DNA of 64,000 nucleotides, taken from positions 1-64,000 of the forward strand of contig NZ_BOPO01000023.1 in assembly GCF_017312725.1 (NCBI RefSeq). The letters run 5' to 3'. Position numbers and translations under genes: made by a program. Below, one piece after another: positions 28,372-41,604 of the stretch. Origin of the DNA: Actinocatenispora comari. Lineage in GTDB: Bacteria > Actinomycetota > Actinomycetes > Mycobacteriales > Micromonosporaceae. How positions within the stretch are numbered: position 1 is the stretch's first letter; each line of letters starts with the position of its first letter. The notes beneath the pieces were generated by a model. The model was not told where the DNA came from. It searched no databases and saw nothing but the letters and a program-made list of their open reading frames with translations.

Positions 28372-28842
28372 GTGCCGGGCCAGATGCAGCAACACGATCG
28401 GCAACCGCCGACGACCACGCCCGGACAGACGACCACGACGCCCGGACACGCGCACCGGGAGTTGCACCGGCCGCACCCGCTGGACCGGATCCGGGCCACC
28501 CCCGGCGGCCGGCTCGCGCTGAAGATCGGGGCGGGGACGCTCGGCGGGGCGCTGGTCGTCCTCGGACTGATCCTGGTGCCGCTGCCCGGGCCGGGCTGGC
28601 TGATCGTGATCGCCGGCCTCGCGGTGCTCGCCGTCGAGTACGCCTGGGCCCGGCACCTGCTGCGCTTCACCCGGCGGCAGCTGCACCGCTGGACCGACTG
28701 GCTGCTGCGCCGCTCCTGGCCGATCCGCGCCCTGGTCGGCGCGGGCGGTTTCGTCCTGGTTGCGGTCGTGGTGTGGGCATCCGTGCGGGTCAGCTTCGGC
28801 ATCGACCTCGCCGCCGTCACCTGGGGGTATCTGAACACCTGA
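28372..28842 (+). CDS. PGPGW-motif membrane protein (TIGR02611-like)
   Basis: The 156-residue protein has a His/Thr-rich N-terminus. Two hydrophobic stretches surround the signature LVPLPGPGWLIVIAGLAVLAVEYAWARHLL (about residues 66-95), with another helix near the C-terminus (ALVGAGGFVLVAVVVWASV). The LPGPGW motif defines this small actinobacterial membrane-protein family, whose function is unknown. It starts at GTG 28372 after GAGGTGGG. It lies just upstream of tRNA-Val. Confidence 0.82.
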   Translation: MPGQMQQHDRQPPTTTPGQTTTTPGHAHRELHRPHPLDRIRATPGGRLALKIGAGTLGGALVVLGLILVPLPGPGWLIVIAGLAVLAVEYAWARHLLRFTRRQLHRWTDWLLRRSWPIRALVGAGGFVLVAVVVWASVRVSFGIDLAAVTWGYLNT

Positions 28843-28894
28843 CCCTGCCCTGCACCCCGGCCGGCACCGTCGGGTACAGTTCTCCACGTCCCGG

Positions 28895-28969
28895 GCGCGA
28901 TTAGCTCAGCGGGAGAGCGCTTCGTTCACACCGAAGAGGTCACTGGTTCGATCCCAGTATCGCGCACCA
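28895..28969 (+). tRNA. tRNA-Val (CAC), CCA encoded
   Basis: Acceptor GCGCGAT pairs with ATCGCGC, the D-arm is GCTCAGCGGGAGAGC, the anticodon loop TTCACAC gives CAC, and the T-arm is CACTGGTTCGATCCCAGT. The 3' CCA is encoded. It closely resembles the tRNA-Val (GAC) at 24739 apart from the anticodon arm and the outer stems. Confidence 0.95.
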
Positions 28970-28972
28970 CCC

Positions 28973-29000
28973 AAGGCCCGAAGCCACCGCTTCGGGCCTT
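28973..29000 (+). terminator. Terminator after tRNA-Val (CAC)
   Basis: A perfect 12-bp stem AAGGCCCGAAGC / GCTTCGGGCCTT with loop CACC starts 3 bp after the tRNA. It is followed by GTTCG. The rest of the gap to 29190 shows no gene. Confidence 0.85.
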
Positions 29001-29190
29001 GTTCGCGTTCGGCGGTCGCCGCCGTGCGGCGGCTCCTCCGATCCCGGCCAAGCACTCCGCATCGCGACCGACATCCGTCGTTGCCGCACTGTTGTGGCGT
29101 TGCCGCCGTCGTGCGGGCAGCCCGCACGACCACGCAGCCAGCCGAAGGGCCCGAGCAGGCCGGCCCCGTCGACCCGACCGGGGCCGGTGG

Positions 29191-29991
29191 TCAGGGGCGG
29201 GCGTCGCGGAGGGTGTTGCGGGCGGTGCGGAGGATGGCTTCGTCGACGAAGCGGCCGTCCGGCAGGGCCGTCGCGCCGGTGGTCTCGACCGCGAGTACGG
29301 CGCGGGCGGCGGCCAGTTCCGCCTCCGTCGGGGCGTACTCGGCGGCGATGACCGGCAGTTGCGCCGGGTGGATCGCGGCGCGGCCGTGGAAGCCGAGCCG
29401 CCGCCCGGCCCGGCACGACGCGGCCAGCCCGGCCAGGTCCCGGACGTTGGCGTACACCGACTGCGCCGGCGCCGGCAGCCCGGCCGCGCGGGCCGCGACC
29501 AGGACCCGGGAGCGCGGGTAGCCGAGACCGTCGTCGGCGTCGGCGGGCAGGCCGAGGTCGGCACGCAGATCGGCCTCACCGAGCCCGATCGAGGCGACGG
29601 CCGGGTCCGCGGTCGCGATCCGGTACGCCTGCTCCACGCCCAGCGCCGACTCCAGCAGCGGGTGCAGCGGGCGGCCGGGCAGCCGGGCGGCGACCGCCCG
29701 TACGGTGGCCGGGTCCTCGATCTTCGGCAGCCGTACGCCGATCGCGGCCGGCAGCGCGGCGACCATCGCGAGATCCGCCTCGCCGGCACCGGTGCGTACG
29801 TCGTTGACGCGTACCTGCACGGCGCGGTCGGTGACCTCGGCCAGCAGCGCGGCCGCCTGCGCGCGGGCGTGGTCCTTGCGGTCGGGGGCGACCGCGTCCT
29901 CCAGGTCGACCAGGACCACGTCGGCCGGGCCGGCGAGCGCCTTGGCCACCCGGTCCGGCCGGTCGGCCGGCACGTACAGCGCGGTCAGCAT
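29191..29991 (-). CDS. CitE-like CoA-ester lyase (HpcH/HpaI aldolase superfamily)
   Basis: I start at ATG 29991 (MLTALYVPADRPDRVAKAL), giving the usual length of about 266 residues; a GTG at 30111 would add a 40-residue Arg/Pro tail. The TIM-barrel motifs are VVLVDLEDAVAPDRK (metal site), VRVND, IGVRLPKIED, LESALGVEQAYRIA with the second metal-binding Glu, and IGLGEADLRADLG. Family members cleave malyl-, citramalyl- or related acyl-CoA by retro-Claisen chemistry. It is the last gene of the 12-kb operon, after the CoA-transferase that could make its thioester substrate. Confidence 0.85.
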   Translation of the reverse strand: MLTALYVPADRPDRVAKALAGPADVVLVDLEDAVAPDRKDHARAQAAALLAEVTDRAVQVRVNDVRTGAGEADLAMVAALPAAIGVRLPKIEDPATVRAVAARLPGRPLHPLLESALGVEQAYRIATADPAVASIGLGEADLRADLGLPADADDGLGYPRSRVLVAARAAGLPAPAQSVYANVRDLAGLAASCRAGRRLGFHGRAAIHPAQLPVIAAEYAPTEAELAAARAVLAVETTGATALPDGRFVDEAILRTARNTLRDARP

Positions 29992-30113
29992 CTCGGGCCC
30001 CGGCTCGAACGGCGACTCGGCGGCGTCGACGTCCCGGCGCGGCGCATCGGCTCGGCCCGGCCGAGGACGACGCGCCGCACCAGCCCGGGGCGGACGAGGA
30101 CGATGCGGCACAT
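29985..30113 (-). other. Bridging mini-ORF between the CoA-transferase and CitE-like genes
   Basis: A 42-codon frame starts at ATG 30113, overlapping the CoA-transferase stop as TGATG. It ends at TGA 29987-29985, just inside the CitE-like start (ATGCTGA). Its sequence is Arg/Pro/Val-rich without a recognisable fold. It may merely carry ribosomes across the 121-bp gap for translational coupling. Confidence 0.35.
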
Positions 30114-31399
30114 CAGATCACCCCGCTGGCGCGGAACGCGGCGATCTCGTCGTCCGGGTAGCCGAGCTCGGCGAGGATCGCGTCGGTGTCGGCGCCCACC
30201 GACCGGCCGGTGAACCGGATCGAGCCGGGCGTCGCGGATAGCCGGAACGGCACGTTCTGCATCGCTATCGGGCCGAGGTCGGCGTCGTCGACCCGGACGA
30301 TCGTGTGCAGCGCGGCGTACTGCGGGTCGGCGGCGATGTCGGACGCGTCGTAGATGGGTGCGACGGCGGCCTGGGCCTGCTCGAACGCGGCGACCACCTC
30401 GTCCCGGGTGCGTTCGGCGATCCAGCCGGCGACCGCGCCGTCGAGCTCGTCGGCGTGCGCGACCCGGCCGGCGCCGGTGGCGAACCACGGTTCGCTGACC
30501 ACCTCGGGCCGCCCCACCAGCCGCATCACCCGCTCGGCGATGCTCTGCGCGCTGGCGGACACGGCGACCCAGCGGCCGTCGGCGCACCGGTACGTGTTGC
30601 GCGGGGCATTGTTCGCCGACCGGTTGCCGGTGCGCGGCTGCACGGCGTGCAGCTGGTCCCACTGGGTGATCTGCGGCCCGAGCATCGCGAGCATCGGCTC
30701 CACGATGGACAGATCGACGACCTGCCCGGATCCGGTGGTGTGGCGGGCATGCAGCGCGGCGAGCACCGCGTACGCGGCGGCGAACGAGGTGATGCCGTCG
30801 GCCAGCCCGAACGGCGGCAGCGTCGGCGGACCGTCCGGCGCACCGGTCATCGCGGCGAACCCGCTCATCGCCTCGGCGAGGGTGCCGAACCCGGGCCGCC
30901 GCCGGTACGGGCCGACCTGGCCGAAGCCGGTGATCCGGGCCAGCACCAGGCCGGGGTTGCCTGCCGACAGCTCGTCGTAGCCGAGACCCCAGCGCTCCAG
31001 CGTGTCCGGCCGGAAGTTCTCCACCACCACGTCGGCGGTACCGGCCAGCCGGCGGAACACGTCCCGGCCACCGTCGGTGGACAGGTCGAGCGTCATGGTC
31101 CGCTTGTTGCGGCCGAGCGTCTTGTACCAGAGGTTGTGGCCGTCCCGGGCGGGGCCGTGGCCGCGGGCCGGGTCCGGCCGGCGCGGGTGTTCGACCTTGA
31201 TCACGTCGGCGCCCAGGTCGCCGAGGTGCATCGCGGTCAGCGGCCCGGCGAACAGCGTCGAGGCGTCCACCACCCGCAACCCCGCCAGGGCTCCGCCCGA
31301 CGCCGGCGCTCCCCCGCCCGGTACCGCGCCGGTGGCGCCGGCAGGCACGGATCGCGCGCCGTCGGCGACCGCGCGGGCCGCGTCGTTCGGCGCGGTCAT
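30113..31399 (-). CDS. CaiB/BaiF-type (family III) CoA-transferase
   Basis: The 428-residue product overlaps the kinase stop by ATGA. After an Ala/Gly-rich start, the family motifs begin: LAGLRVVDASTLFAGPLTAMHLGDLGADVIKVEHP, GRNKRTMTLDL, VVVENFRPDTLERWGLGYDEL and ARITGFGQVGPY. Such enzymes move CoA from a thioester to a carboxylate. In the segment RPGFGTLAEAMSGF, the place where many family members have the nucleophilic Asp (GFD) holds Gly, as in one large subfamily. Within this operon it would activate an acidic breakdown product for the CitE-like lyase. Confidence 0.9.
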   Translation of the reverse strand: MTAPNDAARAVADGARSVPAGATGAVPGGGAPASGGALAGLRVVDASTLFAGPLTAMHLGDLGADVIKVEHPRRPDPARGHGPARDGHNLWYKTLGRNKRTMTLDLSTDGGRDVFRRLAGTADVVVENFRPDTLERWGLGYDELSAGNPGLVLARITGFGQVGPYRRRPGFGTLAEAMSGFAAMTGAPDGPPTLPPFGLADGITSFAAAYAVLAALHARHTTGSGQVVDLSIVEPMLAMLGPQITQWDQLHAVQPRTGNRSANNAPRNTYRCADGRWVAVSASAQSIAERVMRLVGRPEVVSEPWFATGAGRVAHADELDGAVAGWIAERTRDEVVAAFEQAQAAVAPIYDASDIAADPQYAALHTIVRVDDADLGPIAMQNVPFRLSATPGSIRFTGRSVGADTDAILAELGYPDDEIAAFRASGVI

Positions 31400-32292
31400 G
31401 CGACGCCGCCGAGGAAGGCGTCGATCCGGGCCGCGGTCGGTGCCGAGTCGGACGCGCCGGGCTGCTGGACCGACAGCGCGGCGGCGGCCGACGCCCGGCG
31501 CATCGCTTCCGGCATCGCGGCGCCAGCCGCGAGCGCGGCCGCCAGCACGCCGACGAACGTGTCCCCGGCCGCCGTGGTGTCCACCGCGGTGACCGGGAAC
31601 GCCGGTACCGCAACGGGTTCGGTGTCGGCGGTCGCGTACAGCGCACCGCGCTCGCCAAGGGTCAGCAGCACGTCGCACCGCTTCGCCAGTACCTGCGCCG
31701 CCTGGTACGGGTCGTCGACGCCGGCGATGAGCGCCGCCTCGTGCTCGTTGGGTACCAGCAGGTCCACCGCGGCGAGCAGGTCGTCGGGCAGCGGTCGGGC
31801 CGGCGCCGGGGTGAGGACGGTGCGCACGCCGCGCGCGTGGGCGTGGTGCGCCGCGGCCCGCACCACCGGCAGCGGCAGCTCCAGTTGCAGCAGCAGCGTG
31901 TCCGCGGCGTCGATCGCGGCGGCGTGCGCGGGCAGCAGCTCGGTCAGCGTCCCGTTCGCCCCCGGTACCACCACGATCGTGTTGTCGCCGCCGGCGGCCA
32001 CGGTGATGTGGGCGGTGCCGGTGGGTACGTCGGTGCGTACCACCGCGGTGGTGTCGACGCCGGCGGCGGCGAGCGCGGCGAGGATACGCCGGCCGAGGTC
32101 GTCGTCGCCGACCGCGCCGGCGAACCGGACCGTACCGCCGGCGCGGGCCGCGGCGATCGCCTGGTTGGCGCCCTTGCCACCGGGTACCTGGCGGAACTGC
32201 TCGCCGGCGATCGTCTCGCCGCGGCCGGGCAGCCGGGCGGTGGTCGCGACCAGGTCCATGTTGGCACTGCCGAGCACCACGACGTCGGCCAT
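31396..32292 (-). CDS. PfkB-family carbohydrate kinase, ribokinase-like
   Basis: The 298-residue protein has the two PfkB signatures: FRQVPGGKGANQAIAAARAGG (residues about 33-53) and AVDTTAAGDTFVGVLAAAL with the catalytic base Asp and the anion hole. LGSANMDLVATTARLPGRGETI at the N-terminus is typical of ribokinase. It probably phosphorylates ribose or a similar pentose at O5, trapping sugar freed by the four upstream glycohydrolases. It overlaps its neighbours on both sides by ATGA (32292 and 31399), so it is tightly coupled. Confidence 0.92.
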   Translation of the reverse strand: MADVVVLGSANMDLVATTARLPGRGETIAGEQFRQVPGGKGANQAIAAARAGGTVRFAGAVGDDDLGRRILAALAAAGVDTTAVVRTDVPTGTAHITVAAGGDNTIVVVPGANGTLTELLPAHAAAIDAADTLLLQLELPLPVVRAAAHHAHARGVRTVLTPAPARPLPDDLLAAVDLLVPNEHEAALIAGVDDPYQAAQVLAKRCDVLLTLGERGALYATADTEPVAVPAFPVTAVDTTAAGDTFVGVLAAALAAGAAMPEAMRRASAAAALSVQQPGASDSAPTAARIDAFLGGVA

Positions 32293-33689
32293 CAGCTGTC
32301 CTTCCGTTGGGCGGCAACAGTTCCCGCGACGGCCACCGTACGGTCGGCCAGCTCGTCGAAGCCGATGCCGTCGAAGCCGGGCAGGGTGGAGGCGAGCCGG
32401 TTGCGCAGCGGCGCGACCCAGCGCTGCGGCAACGCGCCGGCACCGGTCAGCGCGCCGGCGATCGAGCCGGCGGTGGCACCGTTGGAGTCGGTGTCCCAGC
32501 CGCCGCGTACCGCGTAGGTGATCGTCGCGGTGAAGTCGCCGGCACCGTAGGCCAGCGCCGCGGTCAGCAGCGCCGCGTTGTTGAGCACGTGCACCCAGTG
32601 CAGCTGCCCGTACTCCGCGGCGATCGCGTCCACCGCGGCCTCGAAGTCGGCGTGCTCGGCGGGCAGCGCCCGGGCGAACCGCACCGCCCGCGCGTAGCGG
32701 GAATCCGGTGGTACCGCGGCGAGTCCGGCATCGAGCACCTCGTCGACGGTGTCGGCGACCACGGCGGCGGCACAAGCGGCGGCGACGAACATCGCCCCGT
32801 ACACGCCGTTGCGGGTGTGGCTGAGCACCGCGTCCCGCCAGGCCAGGTCGGCGGCGGCGAGCGGCGCGCCGGGGTGCGTCCAGCCGTGGACGTCGGCGCG
32901 GATCTGCGCGCCGATCCAGTCGGTGAACGGGTTGCGCACCGCCGCGGTGGCCGGCGGCAGGTGGCCGAGCAGCAGGTTGCGGTAGGCGATCCGCTCGGCG
33001 GTGAACAGCCGGCCGGCCGGCAGCTCGGTCAGCCAGGCCTGCGCGACGTCCTGTGTGGACAGGGCACGGCCGTGTCGTTCCAGCAGTTCCAGCGCCAGCA
33101 GCGCGAAGTTGAGGTCGTCGTCCTCGGGCATCCCGGCGATGTTCTCGGCCAGGCTGGTGGGTGCGCTGCGCCGGTTCCACGGCCAGCGCCGCGCCACCTC
33201 CGGCGGCAGCCCGACCGCGGTGAACCAGTCGGTCAGCGGCCAGCGCCCGGTCGCCTCCAGGATCTCCCGGATGCCGGCGCGCGGGATCTTCTCCACCGGC
33301 TTGCCGAGCAGGCAACCCGCCGCCCGGCCGAGCCACGCCCCGTGCACCCGGTCGCGGTACCCCGACCGGCCGGCCGGCGAGCGCGGCACGCCGACGTCCT
33401 TGCGGTCCGGTACCGCACCGGTGCGCAGCCGGCGGATCGCGGCCAGGTCGGTGGGTTCGGTGCCGTCGAGGTCGGCGGGGCGGCGGTCCAGCTCGTCGAG
33501 CACGTCGCCGGCGAGCAGCCGCAACTCGGGTGTCACCGGCCGGTCGGACGCACCGGCGTGCAACGGCTCCGGGTCGCCGCCGGCGGCCACCCAGGCGGTG
33601 CGCAGATCGGTGACGTCGACCCCGTCGAGTACCGCCTGGGCCAGGCCGTGCCCGACCAGGTCCTCGGGCTGGACCCAGGTCAGCCGCAT
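32292..33689 (-). CDS. ADP-ribosylglycohydrolase-fold protein A (long, divergent)
   Basis: The 465-residue protein is the longest of four tandem paralogues. Residues 1-110 are an extension not seen in the others. The glycohydrolase domain then begins HGAWLGRAAGCLLGKPVEK, where the usual GDxxG is replaced by GRAAG. The first metal motif, normally TDDT, reads EDDDLN (189-194). The C-terminal metal motif is well kept as GGWDTDSNGATAGSIAGALTG. It probably binds two Mg2+ and cleaves an N- or O-riboside-type bond, but on a different substrate from classical DraG/ARH enzymes. ATGA overlaps on both sides place it firmly in the operon. Confidence 0.88.
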   Translation of the reverse strand: MRLTWVQPEDLVGHGLAQAVLDGVDVTDLRTAWVAAGGDPEPLHAGASDRPVTPELRLLAGDVLDELDRRPADLDGTEPTDLAAIRRLRTGAVPDRKDVGVPRSPAGRSGYRDRVHGAWLGRAAGCLLGKPVEKIPRAGIREILEATGRWPLTDWFTAVGLPPEVARRWPWNRRSAPTSLAENIAGMPEDDDLNFALLALELLERHGRALSTQDVAQAWLTELPAGRLFTAERIAYRNLLLGHLPPATAAVRNPFTDWIGAQIRADVHGWTHPGAPLAAADLAWRDAVLSHTRNGVYGAMFVAAACAAAVVADTVDEVLDAGLAAVPPDSRYARAVRFARALPAEHADFEAAVDAIAAEYGQLHWVHVLNNAALLTAALAYGAGDFTATITYAVRGGWDTDSNGATAGSIAGALTGAGALPQRWVAPLRNRLASTLPGFDGIGFDELADRTVAVAGTVAAQRKDS

Positions 33690-34837
33690 CACGACAGCAG
33701 CCCGTCGTACCCCGCGTCGACGGCGGCGCGGGCGGTGCGGTCGGCGGTACGGATCCGCCGGGTCACCGCGGCCAACCGCTCCCCCGGACCGACCAGGTCG
33801 GTGCGACTCGCGGTCGCGACCGCGGCGGCGAGGTCCGCGTCGACCGCGTCCCGGCCGTGCAGCGCACCGGCGATCGCGCCGGCCATCGACGCGATCGAGT
33901 CGGCGTCCCGGCCGTAGTTGACGCTGCCCAGCACCGCCTCCCGCCAGTCGCCCTTGGCCACGACCAGCATGCCCAGCGCCAGCGGCAGCTCCTCGATACT
34001 GTGCACCCGGCTCGGCCGGCGGGCGCCGAGCCCCTGGTCCCGGTAGTCGTCGCCGACGGTGTCGTACGGCCGGATCGCGGCCCGCAGCGCACCGGACTCG
34101 ATCGCCTCGGTCCAGTGCGGCACCGTGCCGGCGGCGGTGGTCACCGCCTCCACGGCGGCCCGGGTGCCGTCCTTCGCCAGGCGCAACGCGGCGGCGACCA
34201 CGTCGTCGACGGTGGCGCCCGGGGTGGCCGCGGCGGCGACGCAGGCGGCGAGCACCCCGGCCGCCTCCCGGCCGTACGAGGACTGGTGCGCGCCGGCGAC
34301 GTCGATCGCCTCGGCGTACGCGGCGTCCGGGTCGGCGGCGTTCACGATGCCCACCGGGGCCACGTACATCGCGGCACCGCAGTTGACCGCGTTGCCGACG
34401 CCCGCCTCGCGCGGGTCGGCGTGCGCCCAGTGTAGCCGCAGCGCCAGGTACTTCTCGGCCAGGAACACCCGCTGCAGCGGCAGCGCCTCCGCCTCCAGCT
34501 CGGGCACCCAGCGGCGCTCGCCGAGCATCAGCGGTACCAGCCGTTGCGCCACGTCGTAGGCGGTCAGGTGGGTGCCGGCCTGCTCGTACACCTCGACGAG
34601 CAGGTGTGTCATCAACGTGTCGTCGGTGATGTGCCCGTCGCCCTTGTGGTACGGGGCGATCGGCCGCGCGTTGCGCCAGTCGGCGTAGTACGGGCCGACG
34701 ATGCCGTCCACCCAGCCGCCCCAACGCTGCGCGATCTGCGCCGGACTCCAGCCCTCCGTCGCGCCGCCCAGGGCGTCACCGACGGCGGCGCCGACGAGGC
34801 AGCCGACCGCGCGCGATTCGAGGCTCTCACTGGCCAC
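33689..34837 (-). CDS. ADP-ribosylglycohydrolase-fold protein B (canonical motifs)
   Basis: The 382-residue protein starts at GTG 34837 and overlaps the upstream gene by 11 bp. All ARH/DraG metal motifs are present: GAAVGDALGGATEG (18-29), HITDDTLMTHLL (69-80) and VNYGRDADSIASMAGAIAGALHG near residue 320. It should hold the binuclear Mg2+ centre and hydrolyse an alpha-glycosidic bond to ribose or a related sugar. There is no signal peptide, so it is cytoplasmic. The context of sugar uptake and a ribokinase argues for a catabolic role rather than removal of regulatory ADP-ribosylation. Confidence 0.92.
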   Translation of the reverse strand: MASESLESRAVGCLVGAAVGDALGGATEGWSPAQIAQRWGGWVDGIVGPYYADWRNARPIAPYHKGDGHITDDTLMTHLLVEVYEQAGTHLTAYDVAQRLVPLMLGERRWVPELEAEALPLQRVFLAEKYLALRLHWAHADPREAGVGNAVNCGAAMYVAPVGIVNAADPDAAYAEAIDVAGAHQSSYGREAAGVLAACVAAAATPGATVDDVVAAALRLAKDGTRAAVEAVTTAAGTVPHWTEAIESGALRAAIRPYDTVGDDYRDQGLGARRPSRVHSIEELPLALGMLVVAKGDWREAVLGSVNYGRDADSIASMAGAIAGALHGRDAVDADLAAAVATASRTDLVGPGERLAAVTRRIRTADRTARAAVDAGYDGLLS

Positions 34838-35891
34838 GGGTGGTCCTTTCCACGATGTCGAGCAGGTCGACCCCGGCGAGCGTGGGGTCGCAACAGCCGG
34901 CCAGTCTCCGACAGCGGTCGGCCCAGGACGGCGGCAGTTCGGCGGCGCCGCGTACCGCGCCGAGCAGGGCGCCGGTCAGCGCCGGCGCGCTGTCGGCGAG
35001 CGACGGCAACGCGGCCGCGGCGAGGATCGCGTCGATCGTCGGGGTACCGGCGCGCAGCGCCACCGCGGTCAGCGCGGCGGCGACCGGGACGGTCTGGGCC
35101 GCCGCGCAGCCGTAGCTGTACACCCGGTCCACCAACTCGTCCAGCAGCGGCACCGCCTCGGCCGGGGTACCGGCGCCGGCGACGAGCGCGAGCGCCCGGC
35201 GCAGGGTGCGCCCGGCCAGCTGGTCGATCGGCAGCTGCGCCTCCAGCGCGGCGAGCAGCGTCGGCTCGGGCCGGGAGGCAGCGGTCGCGGGTAGGGAAAC
35301 CGCGGTGGCGACCGCGGCGGCGACCGCGCGGGCGGCGGTGACCCCGTCGCCGGCGTGGGTGACCTCGGCGTCCCACCCGGCCAGCGTCGCCGCGTGCGCC
35401 GGGCTCGTGGCCAGGACGCCGTACGCGACCGCCCGGATCGCGGCGGCGTCGTCGAAGTGGTGCGGGTTGCGCCGGCCGGAGTCCGGCGGCGGCACCCCGC
35501 GGCGCAGGTTGTCGACCGCGACCGCCACGGCGATCCGGCCCACCGGTACGGCGCCGTCCGCCACCGCGACCGCCCAGCGGGCGTGCACCGCCGCCCGGTC
35601 GGCCGGCAGCGGCGCGGAGCCGGCCAGCGTCCAAGCGACCCACTCGGCGTCGTCGCCCGGACCGAGCCGCAGCGGTGCCGGGTCCTGGTTGAGCGCGAAC
35701 GGCACCGGCAGCGTGGTGACCGACTCGACCTCGGCGAACGCGTCCAGTTCCCGGCGCAGCCGCCGGGTCCACCCCGGCAGGACCCGGGAGCGGTGGGTAC
35801 GAGCCGGCCAGCCGGCGGCGTCGCCCACCGCGAGTCCCAGTACGGCGCCGCGGCGGCGATCCGTGCCGGTACGGTCGGTGGGTTCGTTCAT
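34827..35891 (-). CDS. ADP-ribosylglycohydrolase-fold protein C (degenerate metal site)
   Basis: The 354-residue paralogue keeps the N-terminal LGLAVGDAAGWPAR and has GDDAEWVAW (79-87) in the TDDT position. The C-terminal GxDxDT motif is lost: the equivalent region reads ALPSLADSAPALTGALLGAVRG. Two of the usual metal-binding aspartates are therefore missing. It may be a non-catalytic partner of B or D, or use a single metal. Gene order and the ATGA overlap at 35888-35891 show it is translated together with its paralogues. Confidence 0.85.
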   Translation of the reverse strand: MNEPTDRTGTDRRRGAVLGLAVGDAAGWPARTHRSRVLPGWTRRLRRELDAFAEVESVTTLPVPFALNQDPAPLRLGPGDDAEWVAWTLAGSAPLPADRAAVHARWAVAVADGAVPVGRIAVAVAVDNLRRGVPPPDSGRRNPHHFDDAAAIRAVAYGVLATSPAHAATLAGWDAEVTHAGDGVTAARAVAAAVATAVSLPATAASRPEPTLLAALEAQLPIDQLAGRTLRRALALVAGAGTPAEAVPLLDELVDRVYSYGCAAAQTVPVAAALTAVALRAGTPTIDAILAAAALPSLADSAPALTGALLGAVRGAAELPPSWADRCRRLAGCCDPTLAGVDLLDIVERTTRGQ

Positions 35892-36982
35892 CGTCCGGTC
35901 CTCGCCTCGGGGCGCGTTCCGGGCCGCGCCGCGACGAGTCGGTCGGCCAGGTCGCGCATGGTCAGCCCGGCGACGACCTCACCCAGGCAGCGTCCGGTCA
36001 CCGGGCCGATGGCGGCCACCCATTCGGCCGGGATGCCCGCCATGCCGTGACCGGCGCCGCACAGCGCGCCGGCGATCGCGGCGGTGGTGTCCGCGTCGCG
36101 GCCCATCGCCACCGCACCCGGTACGGCCCGGCGCAGCTCGCCGTCCGCGGCGAGGGCGGCGCCGAACGCCAGCCCGACCGCCTCCGGGGCGAGGTCGGTC
36201 CACGGGTAGGCGCGCACCACCAGCGCGTCGAGCAACGCGTCGGGCCCGGCGGCGGTAGCGGCGGTGGCCAGCGCGGCGGCCGTCCACGAGTCGGCCGGTA
36301 CCCGAGCACGGGCCGCCGCGAGCATCTCGCCGGGACGGGCACCGGCGAGCGCCGCGGCGACGGCCACGGCGACCGCCTGACCGGCGTACACGCCCTCGCC
36401 GTCGTGGCTGACCGCGCCGTCCACGGCGGCCAGCCGGGCCGCGAGGTCGAGATCACCCGCCGCGTACACGCCGTGTACCGCGGCGCGCATGGCGAGGCCG
36501 TCGCTCCACGAGTGCAGGTGCTGGCCGGATGCGGGCGGGCGCAGGCCGGCGCGCAGGTTCTCGATGGTGCCCAGCTCGCTGAACCCGGCGCCGGGGAAGC
36601 CACCGGAGCGGCCGGCGAGGTGGCGTACCCAGGCGTCGGCGACCTGTTCGCTGGTCAGGGCCGCGCCGTGCTCGATCAGCAGCAGCGCGCTGAACGCCGC
36701 GTACTCGGTGTCGTCGGTTCCGGCCGGCTCGTCGCGCAGGAACCCGGTCACCGGCCCCCACCGCTCGGCGATGGCCGCGGCGGTCATGTTCTCCGCCGGT
36801 GCGCCCATCGCGTCCCCGATCGCGAGGCCCAGCAGGCAACCCCGGGCCCGGTCCCGGGCGGCATCGTCCCGGTCCGCTCCGTCGCGGGCGGGTTGGTCCC
36901 GGGCGGTGCCGTCCTGGTCGGCCCGCCGGGTGGCCTCGTCCCGGGCGGGTTGGGCGGCGCCGGCCGGGCGGCGTGCGGGCAA
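35888..36982 (-). CDS. ADP-ribosylglycohydrolase-fold protein D (canonical motifs)
   Basis: Catalytic motifs are complete: ARGCLLGLAIGDAMGAPAEN, GTDDTEYAAFSALLL and MGRDADTTAAIAGALCGAGHG. The start is uncertain. I chose TTG 36982, and a further TTG lies inside the 3' end of the binding-protein gene; no ATG or GTG is available before the domain. The first 47 residues are low-complexity and repeat ARD-like triplets (QPARDEATRR, GTARDQPARDGADRDDAARD). The gene follows the ABC substrate-binding protein directly and is the first of the four hydrolases, so it probably meets the imported substrate first. Confidence 0.88.
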   Translation of the reverse strand: MPARRPAGAAQPARDEATRRADQDGTARDQPARDGADRDDAARDRARGCLLGLAIGDAMGAPAENMTAAAIAERWGPVTGFLRDEPAGTDDTEYAAFSALLLIEHGAALTSEQVADAWVRHLAGRSGGFPGAGFSELGTIENLRAGLRPPASGQHLHSWSDGLAMRAAVHGVYAAGDLDLAARLAAVDGAVSHDGEGVYAGQAVAVAVAAALAGARPGEMLAAARARVPADSWTAAALATAATAAGPDALLDALVVRAYPWTDLAPEAVGLAFGAALAADGELRRAVPGAVAMGRDADTTAAIAGALCGAGHGMAGIPAEWVAAIGPVTGRCLGEVVAGLTMRDLADRLVAARPGTRPEARTGR

Positions 36983-37032
36983 GGCTGCCCGGCCGGGCGC
37001 GGGGCGCCCGGCCGGCGCGGCGGCGTCGCGGT

Positions 37033-38331
37033 TCAGTGTCCGCCCCCGGCGACCTGCTTCCAACCCTTGGTGAGCTGGTCGGTGAGCGTGCTGGCGCTGA
37101 TGTCGTTCGCCAGGTACCGCTGCAGGGTCGGGGTGGCGATCTGGTCCTTCCACTGTGGATAGTCCTGGGCGTGCAGGAACGGCGCGTCCACGCTGTTCTC
37201 GCCGGAGACCAGGATCTGGCCCCAGCCGTCCTTGCCACCGGTCTGCTCGCGTACCGCGGTCCGGGCACTCGCGGTGGCCGGGATCAGCCAGTCGCTGCGC
37301 GCCAGCTTCGCCAGGTTCGCGTCGGCGACGAAGTAGTCGATGAACTGCGCCGCCTCCTTGACGTGCTTGGTCGCCTTGGACACCGACAGCGTCTGCGCGC
37401 TCGCCGGCTGGGCGCTGCTGGTACCGGCCAGCGGCGGCAGCACCGCCCACTGGAACCCCTTCGGCGCCTGCTCCTGGATCTGCTGCGCGACATAGGATCC
37501 GGCCACCATCATCGCGTACTTGCCGGCGTAGAAGCCGGGCAGCACGTCGCCGCCGGACTGGGTCAGGCTGGTCGGGTCGATCGACCTGTCGTCGTAGGCC
37601 ATCGCGTGGATGCGCCGCGGCACCTGCATCTCGGCGGTACCGACGGTGATGCTCGCCTTGTCCCCGCTGGTGCTGAACCACTTCCCGCCGAAGTTCGCGG
37701 ACAGGCTGAGCACGGTGGCGGCCGGCTGCTTCAGCCCCCAGCCGACGCCGTGGCTGCCCTTGCCGGTCAGCTTCTTCGCCATCGCCCGGAAGTCGTCCCA
37801 GGACAGCGACTTCCCGGTCGGTACCGGCACGCCGGCCTTGGCCAGCGCCGTGGTGTTGGCGAACACCACGTACGTCTGCTGCAGGGTGGGCACCGCGATC
37901 AGCTTGCCGTCGACGGTCAGCGAGTTCCACACCCCGTCGGCGACGTTGCCGCGCAGCGTACTCGACACGTACGGCTTCAGGTCGGCGAAGTAGCCCTGCT
38001 GGCCGAAGCCGACGATGTCGGCGTTCTCGTCGTGGATGATGTCCGGCGCGGTGCCGCCGGCCAGCTGGGTGACGAGCTGGTCGTGCACGTTGTCCCAGCT
38101 GCCCTGGATCAGCTCGACCTGCACCTTGGGGTGCTCGGCGTTCCAGGCCTTGACCGCCTTCTTGGTCTGCGCCACGGTCGTGTCGGCGAAGGCCAGCGAC
38201 TGGAACTTCAGGTGCACCGTGCCGTTCGAGTCGGTGTCGTCGGAGCTGCTGCCGCCGCCGCTGGTCGCGCAGCCGGTCAGGGTCGCCGCCGTGGCCGCGA
38301 GCATCGCGGTCAGGGCCGTCCTTCTCTGCAT
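37033..38331 (-). CDS. ABC sugar-type substrate-binding lipoprotein
   Basis: The 432-residue protein has a lipoprotein signal (lipobox LTGC, Cys21) and a Gly/Ser linker. A family 1 extracellular solute-binding fold follows: HLKFQSLAFADTTVAQTKKAVKAWNAEHPKVQVELIQGSWDNVHDQLVTQLAGGTAPDIIHDENADIVGF. It captures the substrate outside the membrane for the two permeases encoded upstream. The gene order permease-permease-binding protein is unusual but not rare. No ATPase gene is in the cluster, so a shared MsiK-type ATPase probably drives uptake. Confidence 0.92.
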   Translation of the reverse strand: MQRRTALTAMLAATAATLTGCATSGGGSSSDDTDSNGTVHLKFQSLAFADTTVAQTKKAVKAWNAEHPKVQVELIQGSWDNVHDQLVTQLAGGTAPDIIHDENADIVGFGQQGYFADLKPYVSSTLRGNVADGVWNSLTVDGKLIAVPTLQQTYVVFANTTALAKAGVPVPTGKSLSWDDFRAMAKKLTGKGSHGVGWGLKQPAATVLSLSANFGGKWFSTSGDKASITVGTAEMQVPRRIHAMAYDDRSIDPTSLTQSGGDVLPGFYAGKYAMMVAGSYVAQQIQEQAPKGFQWAVLPPLAGTSSAQPASAQTLSVSKATKHVKEAAQFIDYFVADANLAKLARSDWLIPATASARTAVREQTGGKDGWGQILVSGENSVDAPFLHAQDYPQWKDQIATPTLQRYLANDISASTLTDQLTKGWKQVAGGGH

Positions 38332-38361
38332 GAGGGGTTCCTTCCTTCACCTGTGGCGGGG

Positions 38362-39201
38362 TCAGCCCTTGACCGCGCCGGCCAGCAGGCCGGAGGTCAG
38401 TCGACGCTGCATCAGTGCGAAGAAGACCAGGCTGGGGATCATCGACAGCAGCGATCCCGCGGCGAGCGGGCCGAGCTGTACCTGTCCCTCCTGGCCGACG
38501 AAGCGGGCGAGCGCCAACGGCAGGGTGTTGAGCTGGGGGTCCTGGATGAGCACGAGCGCGAAGAAGAACTCGTTCCAGGACAGGACGAACGCGAACATCG
38601 AGGTGGCCGCGATGCCCGGGAGCAGCAGCGGAAACACGATGGAGGTCAGGGTGCGCAGCCGGCTCGCGCCGTCGGTGGCCGCCGCCTCCTCCAGTTCGGC
38701 GGGGATCTTCGCGACGTAGCCCTGGAGCATCCAGAGGGCGAACGGCAGCGACCACACCAGGTCGACGAGGATCAGGCCGACCAGCGAGTCGATCAGCCCG
38801 AACTGCTTGAGGATCAGGAACAGCGGTACCACGATCAGGATGATCGGGAACACCTGGGACACCAGGATCCAGCCCATCGCCACGCCGCGCAGCCGACTGC
38901 GGAACCGGGCCAGCGCGTACGACGCGGGCACCGAGACGAGCACCACCAGCACCGTGGTGCAGCCGGCCACGATCAGGCTGTTCGCACCGGCCCGCAGCAG
39001 GTCCTGCTGCTCGATCGCGGCCCGGAAGTTGGCCAGCGAGAACGAGTCCGGGAGCAGGCTCGGCGTCAGCGACGCCAGCTCGCGCGGCGTCTTGAACGAC
39101 GTGGACAGCAGCCAGACCAGCGGGAAGCCGAGCAGGACGACGTAGCCGGCGAGCGCGAGGTAGGACAGCGCCCGGCCGAGGGTGAACCGGCGTGAGGTCA
39201 C
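38362..39201 (-). CDS. ABC transporter permease, MalG type
   Basis: The 279-residue protein starts at GTG 39201, overlapping the stop of the partner permease (GTGA). It has six hydrophobic segments and the EAA loop ELEEAAATDGASRLRTLTSIVFPLLLPGIAA, which contacts the ATPase. SWNEFFFALVLI and the C-terminal RRLTSGLLAGAVKG are typical of MalG-like sugar permeases. With the MalF-type partner it forms the membrane channel for the compound bound by the 37033 lipoprotein. Confidence 0.93.
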   Translation of the reverse strand: MTSRRFTLGRALSYLALAGYVVLLGFPLVWLLSTSFKTPRELASLTPSLLPDSFSLANFRAAIEQQDLLRAGANSLIVAGCTTVLVVLVSVPASYALARFRSRLRGVAMGWILVSQVFPIILIVVPLFLILKQFGLIDSLVGLILVDLVWSLPFALWMLQGYVAKIPAELEEAAATDGASRLRTLTSIVFPLLLPGIAATSMFAFVLSWNEFFFALVLIQDPQLNTLPLALARFVGQEGQVQLGPLAAGSLLSMIPSLVFFALMQRRLTSGLLAGAVKG

Positions 39202-40124
39202 TGGGCGGCCCGCCTTTGCGCGCGCAGGTACACGAACATCAGCAGCACGATCACCACGACGGTCACCACGCCCATCGCGGCCGCCAGCCCGAAGTTGCCG
39301 TACTTGAAGGCCTCGTTGTAGGCGAACAGCATCGGCAGCATCGTCTTGCCGCCGGGCCCGCCCGCGGTGAGCACGTACACCAGGCCGAACTCGTTGAACG
39401 ACCAGATGAAGTCGAGCGTGGTGATGGCGACGATGACCGGCCGCAGCGACGGCAGCACGAGGTGCCAGAACCGCTGCCAGGTGTTGGCACCGTCGACCGA
39501 ACCGGCCTCCAGTACGGCCGGGTCGACCGACTGCAGCCCGGCGAGCAGCACCACGGTGGTGGCGGGCATTCCGACCCAGACGCCGACGAACACGACCGCC
39601 GGTAGCGCGGTGGAGAAGTCGCCCAGCCAGTTGACGTTGTGGTCGATGATGCCCAGCGTGGACAGGATCCCGTTCACCGGGCCGGACCGCGGGTCGTACA
39701 TCAGCTTCCACATGATCGCGATGATCACCGGCGGCATCGCCCACGGGATCAGCGCCAGCACCCGGGCGAACGCGGCACCGCGCAGCCGCATGTTCAGCAG
39801 CACCGCGAGCCCGAGCGCGAGCAGGAACTGCAGCACCGTCACCGAGACCGCCCAGATCAGCCCGATCTTGAACGAGTCCCAGAACAGCCCGTACGAGCCG
39901 AGGTCGGCGAAGTTGCCCAGCCCGACGAACGCGCCCGGCCGGCCGGCCGTGGTGTCGGTGAACGCGAGGTAGATGCCCTGCAGCAGCGGCCACACCGACA
40001 GCAGCGCCACCGGAATCAACGCCGGCAGTACCAGGATGGTGCCGCCGCGGTCACGCCGGCGCCGGGGCGCGGTGGGCCGGGTCGGCGCCGGTACCGGCGG
40101 GTCGAGTGTCGCGTGCTGGCTCAT
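39198..40124 (-). CDS. ABC transporter permease, MalF type
   Basis: I start at ATG 40124 (MSQHATLDPP), which follows GGGGAGGG, rather than at the earlier in-frame codon at 40205. The 308-residue protein has a Pro/Arg-rich cytoplasmic tail, six transmembrane segments and the EAA loop VLEAGSVDGANTWQRFWHLVLPSLRP. It pairs with the MalG-type permease. It lies 70 bp downstream of the LacI gene and is the first transport gene of the operon. Confidence 0.93.
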   Translation of the reverse strand: MSQHATLDPPVPAPTRPTAPRRRRDRGGTILVLPALIPVALLSVWPLLQGIYLAFTDTTAGRPGAFVGLGNFADLGSYGLFWDSFKIGLIWAVSVTVLQFLLALGLAVLLNMRLRGAAFARVLALIPWAMPPVIIAIMWKLMYDPRSGPVNGILSTLGIIDHNVNWLGDFSTALPAVVFVGVWVGMPATTVVLLAGLQSVDPAVLEAGSVDGANTWQRFWHLVLPSLRPVIVAITTLDFIWSFNEFGLVYVLTAGGPGGKTMLPMLFAYNEAFKYGNFGLAAAMGVVTVVVIVLLMFVYLRAQRRAAQ

Positions 40125-40194
40125 CGGCCCTCCCCGTTCGTCGGCAGCCCGACGAGGCACGAGACACCGCACCCGTGATTCGTTCGCCGCTCGC

Positions 40195-41211
40195 TCATCG
40201 GTCACCTTCCCGGGCCGGCGTGGACGATTCGCGAACGGTCAGCCAGGGGTCGACGACGACCCGCTCGGCCGGCCGGTCCGGGTCGGCGATCCGGGCCAGC
40301 AGCAGCCGGGCGGCCGCCGCACCGCGCTCGCCGGAGCCGAGGTTGACGCTGGTCAGGCCGGGCGAGACCACCGCCGCCAGGTCGGTGTCGTCGATGCCGA
40401 CCACGGCAAGGTCGTCCGGCACCCGGATGCCGCGCGAGTGCGCCACCCGCATCACACCGAAGGCGAGCAGGTCGTTGGCGCACAGCACCGCGTCCGGCCG
40501 GTCGTCGAGCACCCGTTCGGCGATGTCGCGGCCGGCGTCGACGGTGAACGCGGCCGCCGCGTAGCGACGCCCGGCGCCGGCCAGCAGCCGCTCGTCGGCC
40601 CGGTCGAACCCGCGTTGCCGGGCGGTGCCCGGCACGGTGTCGACGGGACCGTTGACGAACGCGATCCGGTGCCGGTCGGTGTCGACCAGGTGCTGCATCG
40701 CCAGCTGCACCCCGGCGGCCGAGTCGGCCTGCACCGCGTCCAGCGGTACCGCCGCGGGCGGGGTGCCGATGACCACGGCCGGGTGCCGCAGCCGTTGCAG
40801 CGCCTGCAGGATCGGCTCGGTCATCCGCAACGGGCTGATGATCACGCCGTCGGCGTAGCCGCTGGACAGCCCGTCCAGGATGGCGATCTCCTCGGCCACC
40901 TCGGAGTTGCCGGTGGACAGCAGCAGCCGGTAGCCGGCGTCCTTGACCACGGCGGCGACGGCGCGCATCAGGCCGGTGTAGACCGGGTTGCCGACGTCGG
41001 GCACCACCAGGACGAGTTGCTCGGTGCGGCCGACCTTGAGCGACCGGGCCCGCGCGTCCGGGGTGTACCCGAGCGAGTCGACGGCGGCGCGCACCCGGGT
41101 GGTCATCTCGCGGCTCGCCGGCAGCCCGTTCAGGACCCGGGAGACCGAGGCGACGGACACTCCGGCCAGGTCGGCGACCTGACTGAGCGTAGGGCGTGCG
41201 GACAGCGTCAA
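40195..41211 (-). CDS. LacI-family regulator of the ARH operon
   Basis: The 338-residue protein starts at TTG 41211 after an AGGAG site. The LacI headpiece is PTLSQVADLAGVSVASVSRVLNGLPASREMTTRVRAAVDSLGYTPDARARSLK. A periplasmic-binding-like sensor domain follows (LVLVVPDVGNPVYTGLMRAV ... DAVLCANDLLAFGVMRVAHSRGIRVPDDLAVVGIDDTDLA). It is the first gene of the minus-strand operon, with two LacI-type operator candidates in its own promoter. It most likely represses the whole cluster, itself included, until the substrate or a breakdown product binds. Confidence 0.93.
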   Translation of the reverse strand: MTLSARPTLSQVADLAGVSVASVSRVLNGLPASREMTTRVRAAVDSLGYTPDARARSLKVGRTEQLVLVVPDVGNPVYTGLMRAVAAVVKDAGYRLLLSTGNSEVAEEIAILDGLSSGYADGVIISPLRMTEPILQALQRLRHPAVVIGTPPAAVPLDAVQADSAAGVQLAMQHLVDTDRHRIAFVNGPVDTVPGTARQRGFDRADERLLAGAGRRYAAAAFTVDAGRDIAERVLDDRPDAVLCANDLLAFGVMRVAHSRGIRVPDDLAVVGIDDTDLAAVVSPGLTSVNLGSGERGAAAARLLLARIADPDRPAERVVVDPWLTVRESSTPAREGDR

Positions 41212-41604
41212 CCCACCGCTCCTCTCCGGACGGTCAGCTGCAAACGTTCTTGTAAACGACTACAGCGGCAAGCTACAGCACGCTTCCGGGCGCGTCAACG
41301 GTCGATTTCGCGGCAGAACACGCAGGTTGTGGCCGTATGAACCGACCAGGCCGGGGCCCGCGATCGGGCCCACGGCGCGCCGCTGTACGTCGTCGGACCT
41401 GCACCGATGCTTGGCTACGGTGCGTCATCGTCGACCGGCGGTACCCCCGGACGGCGAACCGCGGCGGCGACCAGTGTGGTCGCCGCCGCGGCGGGTTGCG
41501 CTCCGTTCGGCCCGGCCGACCCGTCCGGTCGAGCCGGGGCCCGGTGCAGGGCCGGGCTCGGCGGACGGCCGGGTTGGGGGCCGGGCGGCCCGGTCTGGAC
41601 GGAC
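41212..41604. promoter_or_regulatory. Promoter/operator region of the ARH operon
   Basis: This 393-bp gap holds no gene that I can support. Near the LacI start are two LacI-type half-palindromes: TGTAAACGACTACA (41251-41264, arms TGTA/TACA around AACGAC) and TGCAAACGTT (41239-41248). They overlap where the operon promoter should be. The remaining section up to 41604 is GC-rich and probably contains the terminator of the secreted-protein gene, although no clean hairpin stands out. Confidence 0.5.

What the first reader, a model, noticed from the sequence alone, without database searches (positions are those of the whole stretch)
29191..41211. Eleven-gene operon joining sugar uptake, four ADP-ribosylglycohydrolase-fold enzymes, a ribokinase-like kinase and acyl-CoA chemistry
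Seen: eleven consecutive minus-strand genes, most overlapping by ATGA or GTGA. The order is LacI, MalF-type, MalG-type, binding protein, four ARH paralogues, PfkB kinase, CaiB/BaiF transferase, CitE-like lyase. Known: ARH/DraG enzymes hydrolyse alpha-N- or O-glycosidic bonds to ribose, and ribokinase traps ribose. Inference: this is a nutrient-catabolic use of the ARH fold. An imported alpha-riboside (or ADP-ribose-like or other pentoside) would be hydrolysed inside, the pentose phosphorylated, and a carboxylic aglycone activated with CoA and split. I know of no characterised pathway of this composition.
Basis: partly seen in the sequence, partly recalled or inferred. Interest (0 to 1): 0.88.

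Follow-up and report, generated by a model that had tools for sequence, protein, structure and literature searches.

The report
Sugar-uptake operon with ADP-ribosylglycohydrolase-like enzymes
This stretch holds an eleven-gene actinobacterial operon that appears to import an unknown sugar compound and take it apart with enzymes so far listed as erasers of ADP-ribosylation, which suggests that some of those "erasers" are really digestive enzymes.

Summary
Eleven minus-strand genes (41211 to 29191) encode LacI, two CUT1 permeases, a binding protein, four PF03747 proteins (A-D), a ribokinase, a CaiB-type CoA-transferase and a CitE-type lyase. It is a conserved modular cassette: of 68 loci chosen by similarity to C, D is in 66, A and B together in 59, ribokinase in place in 47, CaiB with CitE in 50, the binding protein in 47. 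A LacI-type operator precedes lacI in 53 of 55 loci. A, C and D keep the DraG catalytic residues; B lost two. Transporter + ARH + PfkB-kinase modules occur elsewhere, E. coli yegTUV among them. By synteny and recalled locus numbers, S. coelicolor SCO2028-2031 are A-D; they are in print as uncharacterised ADP-ribosyl hydrolases, and SCO2028 and SCO2030 were inactive on uracil-linked ADP-ribose. Best reading: catabolism of an imported pentoside, probably a riboside, with ARH-fold glycosidases. Substrate, CoA arm and the role of B are unproven; many Streptomyces keep the enzymes without a linked importer. New variant of a known kind.

The parts
41293..41298 (-). probable -35 box (TTGACG) of the operon promoter
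   Evidence: read by eye; the consensus scan reported no promoter-like site in 28800-41700
41270..41275 (-). probable -10 box (TAGCTT), 17 nt from the -35 box
   Evidence: read by eye; not reported
41252..41263 (-). LacI-type operator (GTAGTCGTTTAC), 41-52 nt upstream of the lacI start
   Evidence: best match of the whole 64 kb window to an operator matrix (17.3 of 26.7 bits; next best elsewhere 14.4), same 12 bases in same-genus loci L116 and L117 (the matrix weights were typed in, roughly); pattern AA.CG.TT in 53 of 55 loci, the window being one of the two misses
40195..41211 (-). LacI-family repressor, 338 aa (TTG start)
   Evidence: Pfam LacI + Peripla_BP_3; best NCBIfam model RbsR, 191 bits, under its cut-off of 382
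39198..40124 (-). MalF-type CUT1 permease, 308 aa (a GTG start at 40205 is possible)
   Evidence: BPD_transp_1; starts
38362..39201 (-). MalG-type CUT1 permease, 279 aa
   Evidence: BPD_transp_1
37033..38331 (-). extracellular solute-binding protein, 432 aa
   Evidence: SBP_bac_1, 142 bits; tree
35888..36982 (-). ARH A, PF03747, about 364 aa (start uncertain: TTG at 36982 or 37063)
   Evidence: DraG-like Glu, TDD and DxDT residues conserved in 67 aligned rows
34827..35891 (-). ARH B, PF03747, 354 aa, two active-site residues lost: probable non-catalytic partner of A
   Evidence: none of 58 rows has the catalytic Glu or the first Asp of DxD; present exactly where A is in the 68 full loci, 59
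33689..34837 (-). ARH C, PF03747, 382 aa, intact metal site
   Evidence: of A-D the model closest to E. coli YegU
32292..33692 (-). ARH D, PF03747, 466 aa, with an N-terminal extension of about 110 aa; metal motif DDD instead of TDD
31396..32292 (-). ribokinase, 298 aa
   Evidence: passes TIGR02152 ribokinase cut-off, 302.1 against 299.65 bits
30113..31399 (-). CaiB/BaiF family III CoA-transferase, 428 aa
   Evidence: CoA_transf_3, 411 bits; Asp201 in 53 of 53 rows; nearest NCBIfam model succinate--glutarate CoA-transferase, 243 against a cut-off of 750
29191..30111 (-). CitE/RipC-like C-C lyase, 306 aa (or 266 aa from ATG at 29991)
   Evidence: RipC model 164.5 bits, cut-off 375; Arg61 and Glu114 in 52 of 52 rows, Asp141 in 52 of 52; nearest PDB chains 8khl and 9nzb

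Best explanation
This is a LacI-repressed catabolic operon. Its CUT1 importer, powered by an ATPase encoded elsewhere, takes up a pentose-containing glycoside, most likely a ribofuranoside or nucleoside-like compound. Inside the cell, metal-dependent ARH-fold hydrolases cut its glycosidic bonds: C and D form the core pair, A is a third enzyme, and B is a probable non-catalytic partner of A. The ribokinase traps the freed pentose as its 5-phosphate. In many lineages a CaiB-type transferase then puts CoA on a freed hydroxy-dicarboxylic acid (malate- or citramalate-like) and the CitE/RipC-like lyase splits it into an acyl-CoA and a 2-oxo acid. Shown here: the gene set, its conservation, its modular loss pattern, the operator and the active-site residues. 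Inferred from established families: sugar uptake, repression by LacI, hydrolysis by A, C and D, and pentose phosphorylation. Speculative: that the pentose is ribose in a riboside, and that the CoA pair acts on the same compound.
For: Conserved order in named actinobacterial records. Operator before lacI in 53 of 55 loci and its degenerate form in the window; stricter form absent before A in 21 of 21 cassettes without the linked binding protein. Kinase over the ribokinase cut-off. Intact catalytic residues in A, C and D. LacI + CUT1 + ARH units in three rhizobial-type plasmids, two of them with a second ARH gene. LacI + ARH + ribokinase + CUT1 in a Mycolicibacterium and a Deinococcus plasmid. 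A BMP-type ABC transporter directly before an ARH gene in Rhizobium ACO-34A. ARH + PfkB kinase next to nucleoside permease, cytosine permease or ABC transporter genes in the six YegU-type plasmid loci that I opened of 88 matching records, and in E. coli. Signs that importer modules were exchanged between cassettes. SCO2028 and SCO2030 inactive on U-alpha-ADPr (PMC13036486, passages).
Against: No substrate is known. CUT1 importers usually carry oligosaccharides or glycerol-phosphate-type solutes rather than nucleosides (recalled). 21 of 68 loci lack a linked binding protein. In 150 genomes of one Streptomyces-type genus the association between importer and D is modest (77 both, 21 importer only, 30 D only, 22 neither; odds ratio 2.7, p = 0.0085, no correction for descent), and the unlinked importers opened sit beside macrolide-glycosyltransferase-like or other resistance-like genes. 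Ribokinase is missing from its place in 21 and CaiB/CitE in 18 of 68 loci, so neither arm is obligatory. The Kribbella kinase falls under the ribokinase cut-off (241). The RipC and CaiB-type scores are far below the equivalog cut-offs. The two inactive S. coelicolor proteins were tied to A and C by recalled locus numbers only.
Confidence: 0.5

Rival explanations
1. Catabolic operon for a larger glycan fragment, with ARH-fold enzymes as glycosidases, but the sugar is not ribose and the ribokinase-like enzyme acts on another pentose or ketose.
For: CUT1 importer; many of the 18 PDB sequences matched by the binding protein are named sugar- or oligosaccharide-binding proteins. An extra gene in 13 of the held loci encodes a protein with an FGE-like C-terminus (Pfam on two of them) and an amylase-superfamily-like TIM barrel in a weak model. 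Two rhizobial-type and one Deinococcus relative fuse the ARH domain to about 400 extra residues.
Against: The window's kinase passes the ribokinase cut-off. YegU-type modules opened use nucleoside or cytosine permeases in four of six cases. The fold model of the extra gene is weak (pLDDT 62.9; TM-scores 0.26-0.50 in the 50 rows listed).
Confidence: 0.27
2. Salvage of ADP-ribose, NAD fragments or other NAD-derived ribosides.
For: Characterised ARG/ARH members release ADP-ribose from proteins or O-acetyl-ADP-ribose (PMC9503650, passages). In a Lactiplantibacillus plasmid the ARH + cytosine permease + kinase genes follow nicotinate phosphoribosyltransferase, an isochorismatase-family hydrolase and a NUDIX gene.
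Against: None of the eleven genes is a Nudix, macrodomain or pyridine-salvage gene. SCO2028 and SCO2030 showed no detectable activity on U-alpha-ADPr. Import of a charged dinucleotide by a CUT1 system would be unusual (recalled).
Confidence: 0.1
3. The ARH proteins remove ADP-ribose from proteins or nucleic acids (regulation or counter-defence), as they are listed in Streptomyces.
For: PF03747 membership; S. coelicolor papers list SCO2028-2031 as DraG/ARH homologues (passages).
Against: Operon-like arrangement with importer, ribokinase and lyase; no PADLOC match for the seven operon proteins scanned; none of the Nudix or WYL regulators or phosphatases of the ARG systems of PMC9503650 (passages); SCO2028 and SCO2030 inactive on U-alpha-ADPr, though other linkages were not reported in the passages that I saw.
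Confidence: 0.08
4. Two unrelated pathways share one operon: sugar uptake and hydrolysis, and a CaiB/CitE arm for an unrelated organic acid.
For: CaiB and CitE come and go as a pair (50 of 68 loci). The window's CitE is closest to Streptosporangiaceae while A-D, the kinase and CaiB are closest to Jiangellaceae (five groups compared).
Against: Where present, the pair stands behind the ARH and kinase genes, and 49 of 50 such loci keep the whole gene order (the exception, L050, has a second kinase upstream of lacI). In the window kinase and CaiB overlap by 4 nt.
Confidence: 0.15

Closest known systems
E. coli yegTUV (with yegW/ggaR)
   Same: ARH-family hydrolase, PfkB-family kinase and a transporter in one operon under a local repressor; plasmid relatives with cytosine permease or ABC transporter
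   Different: One ARH instead of four, a predicted MFS transporter instead of CUT1, GntR instead of LacI, no CoA genes; YegV is only distantly related to the ribokinase here (58 bits); its function is also unknown
DraG / ARH1 / ARH3 ADP-ribosyl hydrolases (PF03747)
   Same: Same fold family; Glu, Asp-Asp and DxD(S/T) residues conserved in A, C and D
   Different: Far below the DraG and Tri1 equivalog cut-offs; B lacks two of the residues; D has DDD for TDD; the context is sugar uptake
Ribose operon rbsDACBK-R
   Same: Ribokinase over cut-off; the LacI-type regulator scores best against RbsR models
   Different: CUT1 importer instead of RbsABC; four ARH genes; no RbsD among the eleven genes
Itaconate degradation (CoA-transferase, hydratase, citramalyl-CoA lyase RipC/Ccl)
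   Same: A CoA-transferase followed by a RipC-like lyase
   Different: No hydratase; the lyase scores 164.5 against a cut-off of 375; the transferase is nearest to succinate--glutarate and formyl-CoA transferases
ARG-centred anti-ADP-ribosylation systems (PMC9503650, passages)
   Same: An ARH-fold enzyme as the central part
   Different: No Nudix or WYL regulator or phosphatase among the eleven genes; instead importer, kinase and CoA enzymes

Membership tests
PF03747 ADP-ribosylglycohydrolase fold | Domain match over the curated cut-off | tested here: met
   A 177, B 84, C 171, D 179 bits against 26.2
PF03747 ADP-ribosylglycohydrolase fold | Binuclear metal and catalytic residues (Glu, Asp-Asp, DxD(S/T)) in A, C and D | tested here: met
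   No substitution at these positions in 67, 81 and 71 rows (gaps: 6, 1 and 1 rows at DxD), except that the Thr before Asp-Asp is Ser in 3 of 67 A rows and Asp in all D rows
PF03747 ADP-ribosylglycohydrolase fold | The same residues in B | tested here: not met
   Of 58 rows none has the Glu (Ala 33, Gly 10, Arg 5, others 9, gap 1) and none the first Asp of DxD (Leu 25, Val 24, others 8, gap 1); Asp-Asp is kept in 58, the second Asp of DxD in 56
ADP-ribosyl hydrolases in function (DraG, Tri1) | Equivalog score cut-offs | tested here: not met
   Best 53 bits against 337 (DraG) and 41.5 against 490 (Tri1)
ADP-ribosyl hydrolases in function (DraG, ARH1, ARH3, Tri1) | Release of ADP-ribose from a substrate | not testable with these tools
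   In print: SCO2028 and SCO2030 inactive on U-alpha-ADPr (PMC13036486, passages); that these are A and C is by synteny and recalled locus numbers
yegTUV-type transporter-ARH-kinase module | Transporter, ARH and PfkB-family kinase in one operon with a regulator | tested here: met
yegTUV-type transporter-ARH-kinase module | Orthology of hydrolase and kinase | tested here: inconclusive
   YegU scores 72 bits with the C model and 66 with A; YegV 58 bits with the kinase model
Ribokinase (RbsK) | TIGR02152 cut-off | tested here: met
   302.1 against 299.65 bits; the Kribbella relative is under it, 241
Itaconate degradation | RipC/Ccl equivalog cut-off | tested here: not met
   164.5 against 375
Itaconate degradation | Itaconyl-CoA hydratase gene in the operon | tested here: not met
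   None among the eleven genes
LacI-regulated sugar operon | Operator before the regulator, conserved between loci | tested here: met
   53 of 55 loci (180 matches in 1.64 Mb of all loci for comparison); window version best of 64 kb. Binding not tested
ARG-centred anti-ADP-ribosylation or defence system | Nudix/WYL regulator, phosphatase, or a known defence protein | tested here: not met
   Pfam; PADLOC 0 matches for 7 of 7 proteins scanned

The most novel reading that the evidence does not exclude
The ARH fold is a widespread intracellular glycosidase family of nutrient catabolism, with an actinobacterial pathway that uses three active ARHs and a pseudo-enzyme partner to strip a pentoside whose hydroxy-acid part is then cleaved as its CoA ester; half of the eight 'DraG/ARH homologues' listed for S. 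coelicolor (SCO2028-2031) would then not be ADP-ribosylation enzymes at all.
Probability: 0.35. Interest if true: 0.8.

Novelty: new variant of a known kind. Interest (0 to 1): 0.62.

Why it matters
PMC5087735 remarks on the much larger number of putative ADP-ribosyl hydrolases than transferases in S. coelicolor (passages). If four of the eight DraG/ARH homologues listed in PMC9411070 (one passage) belong to a sugar pathway, part of that imbalance goes away and assays with ADP-ribose probes are looking at the wrong substrates. It would also give the ARH fold a metabolic role, bear on the unknown function of yegTUV, and offer an operon, a binding protein and a repressor with a predicted operator with which to find the substrate.

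Tried and rejected
Rejected: chance assembly or annotation artefact; defence system; riboswitch control (at Rfam's gathering thresholds only four tRNAs in the window); membership of the itaconate pathway.

Led nowhere: no shared promoter motif between importer-less cassettes and the unlinked importers was seen by eye in the alignments (each set has conserved stretches of its own). The consensus promoter and terminator scan found nothing, so the promoter boxes are read by eye. The AlphaFold model of the extra TIM-barrel/FGE protein was weak and Foldseek gave amylase-superfamily barrels with low TM-scores, so no sugar can be read from it; that gene is absent from the window's own genome (only two short FGE-domain matches). 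Literature: ('ADP-ribosylglycohydrolase' with PfkB, ABC transporter and operon; with CoA transferase and Streptomyces; with LacI and ABC transporter) found 0 papers; one search found 4 unrelated papers; in the listings no title or abstract start described this cassette; led to three papers that name SCO2028-2031 in part or whole. Papers were seen as search listings and, for PMC10819704, PMC9503650, PMC13036486, PMC5087735 and PMC9411070, as passages; none was read in full. The unannotated Halostella and Subdoligranulum stretches (L134, L135) were fetched but not analysed. One of two structure jobs, two of three Foldseek jobs and the RNA-model tools were not used.

12 of the 80 with short flanks were left out of the counts. 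One search counts a kinase in 48 of 68 loci; in L050 the match is another kinase upstream of lacI, so 47 are in place and 15 loci, not 16, show all eleven genes in order. In one search rows with stops, short matches or many X were left out. One count (CitE 'Asp73') was taken at the wrong copy of a repeated motif and was redone. For one search I used 14 of the 15 genomes of that genus found (G443, with only a weaker, shorter match, was left out). In some searches only the 11 best candidates per genome were scored, with cut-offs that I chose (1e-90 and 1e-140); 13 of the 107 D matches start beyond model position 50. Of the 88 records I opened six.

Full report
What is there. The window lies in an 8.0-Mb assembly in 151 contigs; the window itself is 70-76% G+C in 4-kb steps. 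On the minus strand, from 41211 down to 29191, stand lacI, malF-like, malG-like, a solute-binding protein, four PF03747 genes (here A, B, C, D in order of transcription), a ribokinase, a CaiB-type family III CoA-transferase and a CitE-type lyase. Of ten junctions, four can be exact 4-nt overlaps, B/C and D/Rbk overlap by 11 and 1 nt, LacI/MalF, SBP/A and CaiB/CitE depend on the start chosen, and MalG/SBP has a 30-nt gap. No ABC ATPase is among the eleven genes; the rhizobial-type and Mycolicibacterium relatives carry their own UgpC-type ATPase, so here it is probably supplied in trans, as the shared ATPase MsiK does for Streptomyces sugar importers (recalled).

Conservation. In the 68 with full flanks C is in 68, D 66, A 59, B 59, CaiB 50, CitE 50, LacI 48, binding protein 47; a kinase is in place in 47 (48, of which L050's lies upstream of lacI). 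A and B occur together or not at all in these 68, and so do CaiB and CitE. Layouts: all eleven genes in order, 15; all but CaiB/CitE, 16 (15 Nonomuraea, 1 Streptomyces); A-D with CaiB/CitE but no regulator or importer, 10 with and 9 without the kinase (Streptomyces, one filed as Kitasatospora); no A/B, 6 with and 2 without the kinase (Kribbella, Micromonospora, Microbacteriaceae, a MAG); all but the kinase, 6; four single others. The operon is thus built of modules: importer with regulator; A with B; C with D; kinase; CaiB with CitE. It is patchy: a profile of D matched 20 of 346 genomes of the phylum (E <= 1e-30), and B matched 7 of 150 genomes of the family (E <= 1e-20). An extra gene before CaiB in 13 held loci encodes about 660 aa; Pfam on two of them finds only a C-terminal FGE-like domain, and a weak model shows an N-terminal TIM barrel resembling the amylase superfamily. 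It is absent from the window's genome.

The window's operon looks like a chimera. Among five groups compared, its LacI, MalG and binding protein are closest to those of Kribbella and Microbacteriaceae, whose cassettes held here lack A and B; its A, B, C, D, kinase and CaiB are closest to Jiangellaceae with Actinopolymorpha; its CitE to Streptosporangiaceae; MalF does not discriminate. The trees of the binding protein, of LacI and of C agree with this, though the window's LacI and binding protein sit on long branches. Exchange of importer modules between cassettes would suggest that they carry the same or similar substrates.

Regulation. The pattern AA.CG.TT, mostly as GTAAACGTTTAC or GGAAACGTTTCC, stands in the 400 nt before (to 60 nt into) the LacI match in 53 of 55 loci (misses: the window and L059; for comparison 180 matches in 1.64 Mb of all loci). 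In the window the best match of the whole 64 kb to a matrix of these sites is GTAGTCGTTTAC at 41263-41252, 41-52 nt before the lacI start, the same in two same-genus loci. By eye it follows a TTGACG-17-TAGCTT promoter, which the consensus scan did not report. A stricter form (G.AA.CG.TT.C) is absent before A in 21 of 21 cassettes without a linked binding protein (one of them, L078, still has lacI with the site before it), from 8 of 8 stretches around unlinked importers and from 6 of 6 further importer-less stretches. So operator and regulator go together.

Active sites. Aligned with DraG, the catalytic Glu, the Asp-Asp pair and DxD(S/T) are kept in A, C and D (D has Asp for Thr before the pair). 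In B none of 58 rows has the Glu (mostly Ala) or the first Asp of DxD (mostly Leu or Val). B is nevertheless well conserved (43 positions at 97% or more) and comes with A, so I propose a non-catalytic partner. CaiB keeps Asp201 in 53 of 53 rows; CitE keeps Arg61, Glu114 and Asp141 in 52 of 52. The roles of these residues are recalled from the families.

Relatives elsewhere. Plasmids of Nitratireductor, Phyllobacterium and Pseudochrobactrum carry LacI, a CUT1 importer, an ARH C relative and UgpC; the first two also a 690-700 aa ARH. Mycolicibacterium arabiense and Deinococcus aetherius plasmids have LacI, CUT1 importer, an ARH D relative and ribokinase without CoA genes. Rhizobium ACO-34A has an ARH gene directly behind a BMP-family ABC transporter. 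E. coli has yegT (putative transporter), yegU (ARH) and yegV (kinase); the passages of PMC10819704 that I saw predict YegT to be an MFS nucleoside symporter and say that the functions are unknown. YegU matches 88 plasmid records; in the six that I opened the ARH stands with a nucleoside permease (Pantoea), a cytosine permease (Lactiplantibacillus, Paraburkholderia, Plesiomonas) or an ABC transporter (Mesorhizobium, Rhizobium TH2), each time with a PfkB-family kinase. The recurring core is thus transporter + ARH + PfkB-family kinase, and the transporters point to nucleoside-like or glycoside substrates. Exceptions: the three rhizobial-type loci and an Enterobacter locus show no kinase gene beside the ARH.

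Streptomyces. In 19 of the 68 loci A-D and CaiB/CitE stand without regulator and importer; in L049, whose neighbours were identified by family models, the order is glutamate synthase small and large subunit, a VIT-family gene, A-B-C-D-kinase-CaiB-CitE, lgt and trpB, and the same neighbour families recur in this group. S. coelicolor SCO2028-2031 are four consecutively numbered DraG/ARH homologues (PMC9411070, one passage; three of them in PMC5087735, passages). From recalled numbers of the neighbouring genes I take them to be A-D, with SCO2032 and SCO2033 as CaiB and CitE; this was not checked by name. PMC13036486 (passages) reports no detectable activity of SCO2028 and SCO2030 on U-alpha-ADPr, while SCO6735 was active. 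This fits enzymes that are not ADP-ribosyl hydrolases, but only one linkage is covered. In 14 Streptomyces-type genomes with the cassette, 8 have an importer orthologue elsewhere and 6 none at E <= 1e-40. In 150 genomes of that genus importer and D co-occur modestly (77 both, 21 importer only, 30 D only, 22 neither; odds ratio 2.7, p = 0.0085 without correction for descent). The 8 unlinked binding proteins fetched form one clade, sister to the linked Streptomyces ones; neighbours scanned in 6 of the 8 stretches resemble macrolide glycosyltransferases (5) or an rRNA adenine dimethylase (1), and two further ones phosphotransferases. This counts against a strict dependence of the ARH genes on that importer and is unexplained.

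Verdict. The cassette is real, conserved and, by its operator, probably LacI-regulated; it is very likely catabolic. That ARH-fold enzymes act in it as glycosidases is the most economical reading (about 0.75 by my estimate). That the sugar is ribose is likely but not shown (about 0.5), and that the CoA pair processes a part of the same compound is a guess (about 0.4). I found no description of the cassette in ten literature searches of open-licence papers; most subscription papers are outside that library.

Noticed in passing
L119-L126 (unnamed Streptomyces-type genomes): The unlinked importer orthologue stands beside genes with macrolide-glycosyltransferase-like (EryCIII_C/UDPGT) domains in five stretches scanned, beside phosphotransferase (APH) genes in two scanned, and in L122 beside an rRNA adenine dimethylase. 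Why a sugar importer sits there is unknown.
   Followed up: partly
L103-L107, L118: Second ARH D-like subfamily (about 350 aa, E near 1e-125) in Streptomyces-type genomes; the neighbour is a glycerate kinase gene in L103 and L104, the two scanned. Its role is unknown.
   Followed up: no
L112 (same family as the window); similar in L113 and L114: Variant with LacI, importer genes and ribokinase divergent from A-B-D, without C or CoA genes in the stretch (B and D not labelled in L113 and L114, kinase not labelled in L113).
   Followed up: partly
L133:6726-11185: Enterobacter hormaechei plasmid: LacI, an ARH gene of about 711 aa and a solute-binding protein in a row, no permease annotated beside them.
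   Followed up: no
L111:5021-9845: ARH D relative next to a ribokinase and divergent from an open frame with BPD_transp_2 permease domains, another transporter swap.
   Followed up: partly
L098:10703-11815: Deinococcus plasmid cassette: a 370-aa protein without Pfam match between binding protein and ARH D; by eye it resembles alpha/alpha-barrel glycosidases.
   Followed up: no
window:28895-28969: tRNA-Val (cac) on the plus strand just downstream of the operon end; tRNA genes are common insertion sites (recalled).
   Followed up: no
window:13129-13140: Second-best site in the window to the operator matrix (14.4 bits, GTAAACGTTGTC), away from the operon.
   Followed up: no
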